Below are positions 5,823-37,535 of a DNA stretch of 37,535 nt, one piece after another. A program made the translations under genes and the position numbers. Numbering within the stretch: position 1 is the stretch's first letter; each line of letters begins with the position of its first letter. Below the pieces are notes generated by a model. It had not been told where the DNA came from. It saw only the letters and a program-made list of their open reading frames with translations, and did no database searches. The DNA lies in assembly GCF_017599345.1 (NCBI RefSeq), contig NZ_JAGFVL010000028.1:1-37535 (forward strand). Reading direction: 5' to 3'. The stretch is from Gracilibacillus suaedae. Its GTDB lineage: Bacteria > Bacillota > Bacilli > Bacillales > Amphibacillaceae.

Positions 5823-5830
5823 ACCACTCA

Positions 5831-6376
5831 CAGTAGATACATACTGCGAAGTAATGAAAACTCTGTTTAGTGAGCTTTCTTCCATTCTTCTGAAGTGGAG
5901 TGCTCATTCGTCGCTGCGGAAAAACACTCCCTTTCCGGGGGCACGGCCTCAGCTAACTTGGTGAAGAAGACCACTTCACCAAGTGGATCTTCGGCTCGCG
6001 CTGTTCCCCCAGGAGTGTCGCATTTTTCCGCAGCTTAGTGTGTATTTCTTATCAAGTAAGAAGAAATTTACAGAATATATCTACCAAAAGTTCTCTTCTT
6101 TCGAAAATCAGAACACTACGCTTAGTGGAGGCAGAATACGGAGAATCCTATGGGAACTCACGCGAGTCTTAAGACCCTGTGATGCAACTGCGTCTTCTAG
6201 TAACGCTTCGAAGTGGCCTCCTCGGTGCAAGGGAGCAAAGAAGATAATTCCAAGTTGTTCCCGGCTAAGGCCGTGCCCGTGGAAAGCGTAGTATCTTGCC
6301 GGAGTGCATGTAAGCACTTATCAAAATTCAGAATGGGGGGGGAGTAAATCCATGTCCAGTTTCTGCGCAGTTTATG
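5831..6376 (+). repeat. Composite repeat, copy A (putative non-autonomous mobile element)
   Basis: The left end, cagtagatacatactgcg followed by aagtaatg (5831-5856), matches the ends of the copies at 31108-31685 and 37167-37535. Two hairpin modules follow. Module 1 (5913-6034) is closed by gctgcggaaaaa/tttttccgcagc and contains the family cores CAGCTAACTT and AAGTGGATCTTCGG. Module 2 (6127-6302) is inverted: its outer arms match the family (ggcagaatacgga..., ctaaggccgtgcccgtggaaagcg) but its centre is divergent. The right end, gcgcagtttatgg near 6366-6376, is a degenerate version of the other terminus. No credible gene lies inside; the open frames here are side effects of the palindromes. The target duplication is not clear. 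Confidence 0.75.
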
Positions 6377-6425
6377 GATATTTTGAAATAATTTATATTT
6401 TTATTAGTAAAGATTTCATGAATGG

Positions 6426-31048: not shown

Positions 31049-31090
31049 AAAGCTCCAAGTTTAGTACAATTCTGAACTTGGAGCTTTCTA
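31049..31090 (+). terminator. Terminator of the aromatic supraoperon
   Basis: A perfect 13-bp stem, AAAGCTCCAAGTT (31049-31061) with AACTTGGAGCTTT (31075-31087), is followed by a short T/C-rich tail. It starts 7 nt after the aroA stop. Confidence 0.85.
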
Positions 31091-31107
31091 TGCTTAGACA
31101 AAAAACA

Positions 31108-31685
31108 TAAACTGCGAAGTAATGTGTACATGAATTTGCTCTCTTCCACACTATATTTTAAAGAGTGCTACCATTCGCTCCGGCAGAATACTGCGCTTTC
31201 CGTGGACACGACCTCAGCTAACTTGGAAAAGAAAAGCACTTAACCAAGTGGATCTTCGGCTCGCGTGAGTTCCCACAGGAGTCTCCGTACTCTGCTTACG
31301 CTATTTTTGTGCTCTGATTATAGAAAGGAATGAATTCATGGAACTAAACTTTTCTGTTTTATTACAGTGCTAACGTCTGTAAATCGCTTCACTGAGTATA
31401 TATAGTGGTGAAATCGACTTGATGAATTCGTATTAGCGTTGTTGAGCACATCTCAGCGATGGCCGCCCACTTCTACTCCTGTGGGAATCGTTTGACCTAA
31501 AGATCCACTTTTTCGAGCGGTTTTTGCTCAAAAAAGTTAGCTGAAGGGCAAACCCCACAGAAAGGGAAATGGGCAGCCAGAGTGGCGGTTATCATCACGA
31601 TATATGTCAAAATTACTTCATAAGTGACCACGCATTTATTTTCGAACAAATAGTATTTTCACTATTTCGCAGTATTTATCTAATG
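31108..31685 (-). repeat. Composite repeat, copy B (complete, opposite orientation)
   Basis: This is the best-preserved copy. The outer ends are actgcgaagtaatg (31111-31124) and cactatttcgcagtatttat (31660-31679), nearly inverted copies of one another. Hairpin module of type alpha (31176-31302) holds CAGCTAACTT and ACCAAGTGGATCTTCGGCTCGCG. The module of type beta (31461-31586) is inverted, with CCACTTTTTCGAGC and AAAAAAGTTAGCTG. The spacer between them (gtgctctgattatagaaaggaatgaa...) and the flank after the second module (cacgatatatgtcaaaattacttcat) recur in reverse complement in copy C, so the whole unit of about 0.58 kb is the repeat and not only the hairpins. No credible protein is encoded. 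It lies between aroA and ypiA. Confidence 0.8.
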
Positions 31686-31821
31686 TGTATCTTATGGATA
31701 TCGTGCAGGGACGGACTATGCATAATTTTTTGTTTTTACAAATTGTCTTAGTTGCTCGATTGGTTGTTATCAGATAAGATGAATAGTTAGAAGTATACGT
31801 TATAAAGAAAGGTTGAAATCA

Positions 31822-37109: not shown

Positions 37110-37166
37110 CCTGAAACATGAAACCAACCGCCATAGCCCACTTAATGTATATAAGATCATACTGTG

Positions 37167-37535
37167 CAGTAGATATATACTGCGAAGTAATGAAAATACT
37201 GTTTGTTCGAAATTAAATGCACAGTCACCTATGAAGTAATTTTGACATATATCGTGATCATAACTGCCACTCCGGCTGCCCACTTCCCTTTCCGTGGGGT
37301 TTGTCCTTCAGCTAACTTTTTCGAGCCAAAACCGCTCGAAAAAGTGGATCTTCAGGTCAAACAATTCCCACAGGAGTGAAAGTGGGCGGCCTTCGTTAAG
37401 ATATGCCCTACAACACTAATCCGAAATCAACCAATCGAATTCTCCACCATATGTATTTCCATGAGTTCTATCCTTTCTATAACCAGAGCACAACAATAGC
37501 GTAGGCAGAATACGGAGACTCCTGTGGGAACTCAC
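37167..37535 (+). repeat. Composite repeat, copy C (cut by the window end)
   Basis: It begins with cagtagatatatactgcg and aagtaatg (37167-37192), the same end as copy A and, inverted, the right end of copy B. The beta hairpin module spans 37264-37391, with arms CCCACTT...GTGGG and centre CTTTTTCGAGC/GCTCGAAAAAG. The conserved spacer follows and then the start of an inverted alpha module (from about 37508: gtaggcagaatacggag...). Compared with copy B the spacer is roughly 60 nt shorter. It runs off the window, consistent with a contig ending in a repeat. Confidence 0.8.

What the first reader, a model, noticed from the sequence alone, without database searches (positions are those of the whole stretch)
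31108..31685. A composite two-hairpin repeat family with conserved ends: likely a non-autonomous mobile element or structured RNA family
Three copies (5831-6376, 31108-31685, 37167-37535) share outer ends around ACTGCGAAGTAATG, two inverted hairpin modules and, in B and C, the non-palindromic spacer and flanks. Copy B is in the opposite orientation and the order of modules (beta near one end, alpha near the other) is kept. Conservation of the spacer means the unit moves or evolves as a whole and is not just isolated palindromes. All copies lie at operon boundaries. Hairpin modules with cores like these seem to occur in other Bacillaceae, but I cannot recall a description of this assembled unit.
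Basis: partly seen in the sequence, partly recalled or inferred. Interest (0 to 1): 0.7.

Follow-up and report, generated by a model that had tools for sequence, protein, structure and literature searches.

The report
Paired-hairpin repeats beside gene terminators
These are real copies of a scattered, non-coding DNA repeat of a Gracilibacillus bacterium: fixed ends around two swappable hairpins, usually just behind a gene's stop signal; the hairpin also turns up in most of the related genomes examined, and we found no entry for it in the RNA catalogue or the papers searched.

Summary
The window lies in a Gracilibacillus genome with 13 further copies of B spanning nearly all of it, three more cut by contig ends, and 121 end motifs against 10 reversed controls. 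The unit is left end, forward hairpin, spacer, reverse hairpin, right end; 29 two-ended copies measure 175-597 bp and show no other hairpin order. Left ends lie beside an intrinsic terminator in 41 of 64 cases, right ends in 4 of 38. No target duplication was detected. Some relatives lack the unit at a site; others keep its ends there with different hairpins. Reading: an old non-autonomous repeat, rarely inserted, with interiors overwritten by gene conversion (inferred). The hairpin is a separate module: strong covariation, matches in 105 of 121 genomes of the order, own genus included, and use by an unrelated MITE with 8-bp duplications. No Rfam 15 match overlaps it in the stretches scanned. 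The mobiliser is unknown: a relative with 91 end motifs gave no match for Y1, IS110-type or reverse-transcriptase domains.

The parts
31096..31690 (+). Copy B, complete composite repeat between aroA (3-phosphoshikimate 1-carboxyvinyltransferase) and a TPR-protein gene
   Evidence: 13 near full-length relatives in own genome; conserved end columns; gene names
31096..31125 (+). Left end of copy B (consensus gCACAAAATCC-ATAWACTGCGMAGTAACG)
   Evidence: 64 left ends profiled
31176..31303 (+). Hairpin alpha of B, forward orientation (CTTTCC...AGGAGT core); decayed as a fold in this copy (z -0.13 on +, -1.27 on -)
31304..31453 (+). Spacer, largely shared with copy C
   Evidence: inverted repeats I1 and I2
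31454..31588 (-). Hairpin beta of B, same core read on the - strand; z -4.72 on +, -7.75 on -
31658..31690 (+). Right end of copy B (consensus CATTACTTCGCAGTATRTATCTACTACGAAT)
   Evidence: 45 right ends profiled; outermost bases
31050..31089 (+). Terminator-like hairpin with T-run of the upstream gene, just before the left end
   Evidence: read by eye; left-end association tested genome-wide
5826..6387 (-). Copy A, same ends around other hairpins, between prsW and sleB
37162..37535 (-). Copy C, right part only, cut by the contig end, downstream of lhaT
   Evidence: 99.7% identical over 361 bp to copies on contigs C58 and C49

Best explanation
A family of non-autonomous, chromosomal interspersed repeats with defined ends and two hairpins facing opposite ways. 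Shown by calls: defined ends, fixed hairpin geometry, polar placement behind terminators, no detected target duplication, presence or absence at the same site among species, different interiors inside the same ends at one site, and strong pairing covariation in the hairpin. Inferred: copies arose by rare insertions made in trans by an enzyme that leaves no target duplication and prefers the downstream side of intrinsic terminators, where insertion is harmless. A copy then stays for a long time, while recombination between copies (ectopic gene conversion) overwrites its interior, so the ends persist at a site while hairpins and spacer change. The hairpin is an older, separate module of the order, whose folded form (probably as DNA, from either strand) is what selection or an unknown binding protein sees.
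For: Copies and ends. Geometry: of 29 two-ended copies 17 forward-reverse, 3 forward only, 3 reverse only, 6 neither, 0 in another order. Terminators: left ends 41 of 64, right ends 4 of 38, random windows 67 of 2000. Polarity: the longest neighbouring frame reads toward the element at 50 of 64 left ends and 10 of 38 right ends. No duplication in 29 copies. Sites without the element: site A has no end motif at up to 3 mismatches in 8 of 9 relatives; site B none in G001 and G015. Same site, other interior: site B has both ends in G014, G011 and G012, one worn end in G016 and in G002, one right-like motif in G010; site C both ends in G002 and a weak remnant in G014, while copy C itself is 99.7% identical over 361 bp to copies at two other loci. 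Within-genome similarity. Module: all five covariation measures 0 of 500 shuffles; 105 of 121 genomes; an unrelated MITE with at least 7 of 8 duplicated bases in 28 of 32 copies.
Against: No enzyme or autonomous copy was identified, so insertion itself is inferred. No insertion boundary could be fixed base by base, because flanks of species without the element are too diverged. Repeated insertion at one favoured site would also give old sites with changed interiors. The evidence for homogenisation is mixed: copy B is no closer to G000 copies than to a G014 copy (best 82% in both), and the right part of G014 site B is closest to G000 copies. Copies A and C do not follow the majority polarity. 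The hairpin pairing could be kept by template-switch mutation rather than selection; a few hairpins are perfect palindromes.
Confidence: 0.6

Rival explanations
1. Ordinary MITE of a TIR transposon whose target duplications have decayed and whose autonomous parent is lost or unsampled.
For: Inverted terminal motif at both ends, sites without the element, short forms of 175-335 bp without a recognised hairpin; partial copies 99.6-100% alike at different loci; the same hairpin rides in a MITE elsewhere.
Against: No offset shows a duplication in 29 copies, whereas 28 of 32 copies of the other-genus MITE show at least 7 of 8 duplicated bases. Paired ends in the fetched G000 stretches are at most 597 bp apart. 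In the G014 listing I saw one wider pair (922 bp) with a run of N inside, unresolved. Listings are capped, so a parent is not excluded.
Confidence: 0.2
2. REPIN-like element moved by an IS200-type Y1 (RAYT) transposase acting on folded single-stranded hairpins.
For: Two hairpins in inverted orientation with a conserved imperfect core; rare outside chromosomes: 1 of 72,556 plasmid records and 0 of 50,697 phage records matched. That such enzymes leave no duplication is recalled.
Against: Units are about 580 bp and hairpins about 130 nt.
Confidence: 0.06
3. Structured RNA family or cis element (terminator, mRNA stabiliser, sRNA) kept for host function.
For: Strong covariation, placement at gene ends, presence at orthologous sites, conserved T-G pairs on the forward strand.
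Against: Mostly placed behind an existing terminator; the two hairpins face opposite strands; the forward strand folds better in only 11 of 53 modules; hairpins are lost or swapped at orthologous sites; alpha of copy B folds no better than shuffles; no Rfam match. Transcription was not testable.
Confidence: 0.12

Closest known systems
BOX elements of Streptococcus pneumoniae (PMC3049150, passages read)
   Same: Modular interspersed repeat of 67-637 bp with outer modules and a variable interior, predicted to fold, transposing rarely
   Different: BOX has terminal repeats with target duplications and tandem boxB units; here two opposite-facing hairpins of about 130 nt, no duplication detected, placement behind terminators. 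Sequence homology not tested
SPRITE repeats of S. pneumoniae (PMC3049150, passages read)
   Same: Enriched near gene 3' ends; no target duplication established
   Different: SPRITE is itself terminator-like; here the terminator lies outside the left end
bcr1 of the Bacillus cereus group (seen only in passages and references)
   Same: Non-coding Bacillus repeat with a conserved fold and signs of mobility
   Different: 147-167 bp; sequence relation not tested
REPIN/BIME repeats (recalled, and search listings)
   Same: Inverted pairs of imperfect palindromes in chromosomes
   Different: Much larger here, flanked by their own ends, abundant in genomes without a Y1 match
Bhal-1 stem-loop family of Bacillus halodurans (table of PMC2267715 seen as a passage)
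   Same: Unexplained intergenic stem-loop repeat of a Bacillus species; could be a relative of the hairpin

Membership tests
MITE | Terminal inverted repeats | tested here: met
   Left and right ends share ATAWACTGCGMAGTAA in inverted orientation
MITE | Target-site duplication | tested here: not met
   29 two-ended copies; best z 3.2 among 4576 offset-and-length combinations, and in the 15 best at most 1 of 29 copies exact
MITE | Autonomous relative with the same ends | tested here: inconclusive
   None among pairs in fetched G000 stretches or the capped G014 listing; one 922-bp G014 pair unresolved
REPIN / RAYT system | Y1 transposase in the host genome | tested here: not met
   No match in G014, G002, G010, G004; a fragment in G000
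REPIN / RAYT system | GTAG-type tag on a 20-40 nt palindrome | not tested
   Only size compared: hairpins are about 130 nt
Group IIC intron (insertion behind terminators is recalled) | Intron RNA domain and reverse transcriptase | tested here: not met
   No Rfam match in the window at gathering scores nor a relevant weak one in copy B; G014 has the ends but no RT match
Structured RNA family | Covarying pairs | tested here: met
   21 of 30 pairs with double changes; 227 cells against 62 shuffled and 47-60 when slid
Structured RNA family | Defined sense strand and transcript | tested here: inconclusive
   Opposite-facing hairpins and conflicting strand signals; no RNA data available
BOX-type modular repeat | Fixed outer modules with a variable interior | tested here: met
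   Same ends around several hairpin types, other inserts, or no recognised hairpin
BOX-type modular repeat | Sequence homology to boxA/B/C | not tested
   BOX sequences were not fetched

The most novel reading that the evidence does not exclude
The hairpin is the recognition unit of an undescribed system found throughout the order: a conserved protein (or RNA-guided enzyme) recognises its folded core, which has let the module ride in unrelated non-autonomous elements, one kind leaving no duplication behind terminators and another leaving 8 bp. The Gracilibacillus composite would then be a natural two-site substrate.
Probability: 0.25. Interest if true: 0.78.

Novelty: new variant of a known kind. 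Interest (0 to 1): 0.52.

Why it matters
If right, a hairpin carried by most genera examined in an order has gone uncatalogued, and the composite gives a tractable system for asking how repeats without target duplications spread and how gene conversion reshapes them. The covariance model makes the hairpin findable in any genome of the order, and the same module inside an 8-bp-duplicating MITE separates what the hairpin does from what the ends do. Such repeats also break assemblies: this window ends in one.

Tried and rejected
Rfam: no match in the window at gathering scores, only irrelevant weak ones in copy B, and in 16 loci with hairpins five known RNAs, none overlapping a hairpin. Y1, IS110-type and RT domains as mobilisers: no match in G014, which has 91 end motifs; G000 itself has 12 IS110-type and 8 RT matches, so past action is not excluded. 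Wide end pairs: none in fetched G000 stretches; one of 922 bp in G014 left unresolved. The sense-strand tests conflict. Plasmids: one record, which carries yabG, rsmA and rnmV; phages: none. Nine paper searches gave no description of the composite or the hairpin that I recognised in the listings; one E. coli paper holds one 12-letter stretch, taken as chance. Four papers were seen as found passages only (PMC2267715, PMC3733652, PMC3049150, PMC12306157), all others as listings.

Limits: the terminator threshold was chosen ad hoc; left/right class was set by the outer three bases, so a few chance motifs may be among the 64 left ends; tests used ends with at most 2 mismatches. One search uses the longest stop-free frame in 700 nt, not called genes. 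The model scan scored at most 27 candidates per genome and the order is as classed by the tool, so one search gives presence, not copy number. One search compares 29 G000 copies with 7 G014 copies and three G014 site pieces only. Dropped before counts: 211 hairpins to 201 by core length, to 53 by similarity, to 46 by eye for the alignment: L012, L013 -, L196 +, L201 -, L224, L234, L111, of which L012 and L111 are near-perfect palindromes and two (L201 -, L224) had no clear fault. One search reports 86 stretches and lists 80.

Full report
What is there. The window is contig C25 of a 4.65 Mb draft genome. Its close relative G014 has contigs of the same lengths as records of Gracilibacillus lacisalsi DSM 19029 (377458 and 360562), so the genus is Gracilibacillus. 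The three copies exist as described. Copy B lies between aroA and a TPR-protein gene, copy A between prsW and sleB, copy C after lhaT. Copy C is cut by the contig end, as are several other copies.

Ends. Fetched stretches of the own genome (87 segments, 207 kb) gave 64 left and 45 right ends. The left consensus is gCACAAAATCC-ATAWACTGCGMAGTAACG, weak in its outer part; the right, read outward, is CATTACTTCGCAGT-ATRTATCTACTACGAAT (outermost bases). The core ACTKCGMAGT is nearly palindromic. The 16-base motif occurs 121 times at up to 2 mismatches against 10 for the reversed pattern, and in G002, G014, G016 and G011 68, 91, 56 and 23 times at up to 1 mismatch against 0 to 2. In Sediminibacillus halophilus (L221) two such motifs lie 504 bp apart around a hairpin core.

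Geometry. Of 29 copies with both ends (175-597 bp), 17 have a forward then a reverse hairpin, 3 forward only, 3 reverse only, 6 neither by my pattern, and none any other order. The forward core starts 87-91 nt from the left end in all 20 copies that have it. In the 17 forward-reverse copies the reverse core ends 92-94 nt from the right end in 6, 112-114 nt in 8, and elsewhere in 3. Other end motifs lead into quite different inserts: the ends are the constant, the interior varies.

Placement. A terminator-like hairpin reading into the element lies within 110 nt outside the left end in 41 of 64 cases, outside the right end in 4 of 38, and in 67 of 2000 random windows of the same segments. The longest stop-free frame in the flank reads toward the element at 50 of 64 left ends and 10 of 38 right ends. 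Copy B fits; copies A and C are exceptions, their right ends facing the 3' end of the upstream gene.

No target duplication. 4576 combinations of boundary offset and length were scanned in the 29 copies; the best had z 3.2, and in the 15 best at most 1 of 29 copies was exact. In nine copies of G033, with other ends, I saw none by eye.

Comparison of sites. Site A: the element is in G000 and G014 (its right end there damaged); 8 of 9 relatives show no end motif at up to 3 mismatches, though G002 has another insert. Site B: G014, G011 and G012 have both ends, G016 and G002 one worn end each, G010 one right-like motif, G015 no recognisable end but hairpin-like inserts, G001 nothing. Site C: G002 has both ends with other hairpins, G014 a weak right-end remnant, G016 no motif. 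So some sites are shared by species whose flanking genes are 72-92% alike. Yet copy C is 99.7% identical over 361 bp to two copies at other loci, and three more copies at different loci are 99.6% alike over 502 bp.

Gene conversion. The G014 copy at site A is closest to another G014 copy (91%), and the left part at site B to G014 copies (93, 91, 89, 89%); in neither case is the G000 orthologue among the nine best printed, although neighbouring genes are 89-92% alike. Copy A is closest to other G000 copies (90% over its length, 96% over part). Against this, copy B is equally distant from the best G014 and G000 copies (82%), and the 117-bp right part of G014 site B is closest to G000 copies (92%), its orthologue standing at 86%. 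The picture fits ectopic gene conversion, or repeated insertion at one site; it is not proof.

The hairpin module. 211 distinct hairpins were extracted and 46 diverse ones aligned. Sixteen columns are invariant, mainly in the CTTTCC and GGAGT parts of the core, while outer and inner stems change in pairs: 93% of cells pair, 21 of 30 pairs show double changes, 227 double-change cells against 62 in shuffles (0 of 500 as high) and 47-60 when slid. The model matches 105 of 121 genomes of the order, 78 of 93 genera; 16 genomes had no match. Exact matches to one 29-nt core come from Pullulanibacillus, Paraliobacillus, Amphibacillus, Virgibacillus, Aquibacillus, Sediminibacillus, Thalassobacillus and others. 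In the record named Paenibacillus bovis DE0126 the hairpin sits alone in a 183-190 bp element ending GCTCTG...CAGAGC, with at least 7 of 8 flanking bases duplicated in 28 of 32 copies (59 of 992 in the cross-paired control). So the module is independent of the ends that carry it. In G033 it forms pairs with yet other ends, with a terminator-like hairpin at the right end.

Strand. The forward strand folds better as RNA in only 11 of 53 hairpins (means -49.5 and -53.5 kcal/mol), but it holds conserved T-G pairs. With the opposite orientation of the two hairpins this gives no clear sense strand; I lean towards recognition as DNA, an inference. Copy B is partly decayed: alpha folds no better than shuffles (z -0.13 and -1.27), beta strongly (z -4.72 and -7.75).

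Mobiliser. Y1 (IS200/RAYT), IS110-type and reverse-transcriptase domains gave no match in G014, which has 91 end motifs. Plasmids gave one record, phages none. The mover is unknown, rarely active, or gone from these genomes.

Judgement. It behaves like BOX-type modular repeats (PMC3049150, passages) but meets the full definition of no family tested. The least expected parts are the order-wide hairpin and its reuse by an unrelated MITE; neither was found in Rfam 15 nor in the nine paper searches. The library lacks most subscription papers, so an earlier description cannot be excluded.

Noticed in passing
L047-L063; L094-L102 (G033): Other composite families carry the same hairpins with different ends (for example CGAAGTAGTTATTTTGA); G033 copies end in a terminator-like hairpin and several begin behind host T-runs or terminators (by eye).
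   Followed up: partly
G000 C54:195564, C19:35708, C2:4434, C59:364002, C16:1494; G014 site C (L120): The same ends lead into quite different repeated inserts (CCTTCCGAGG-type and GGACATTTGTTCCGCTATTTGTGACAA-type), so there seem to be further kinds of interior.
   Followed up: no
44 of the 80 loci listed (VEFU01 records): A genome labelled Paenibacillus bovis DE0126 supplies over half of the listed exact core matches, inside a MITE with 8-bp duplications; its label may not fit its taxonomy.
   Followed up: partly
NZ_CP088021.1 (L280): A Radiobacillus kanasensis 'plasmid' record carries yabG, rsmA and rnmV, so it may be a chromosomal piece; it is the only plasmid hit for this repeat.
   Followed up: no
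L012, L111, L227, L251: A few hairpins have an inner stem turned into a perfect palindrome (AGCTAACTT...AAGTTAGCT), as template switching would produce; the imperfect form is the rule among the hairpins seen.
   Followed up: no
G000 contigs C41-C43, C45-C49, C60 and others: Identically scoring reverse-transcriptase and IS110-type transposase matches lie near many contig ends of the draft genome.
   Followed up: no
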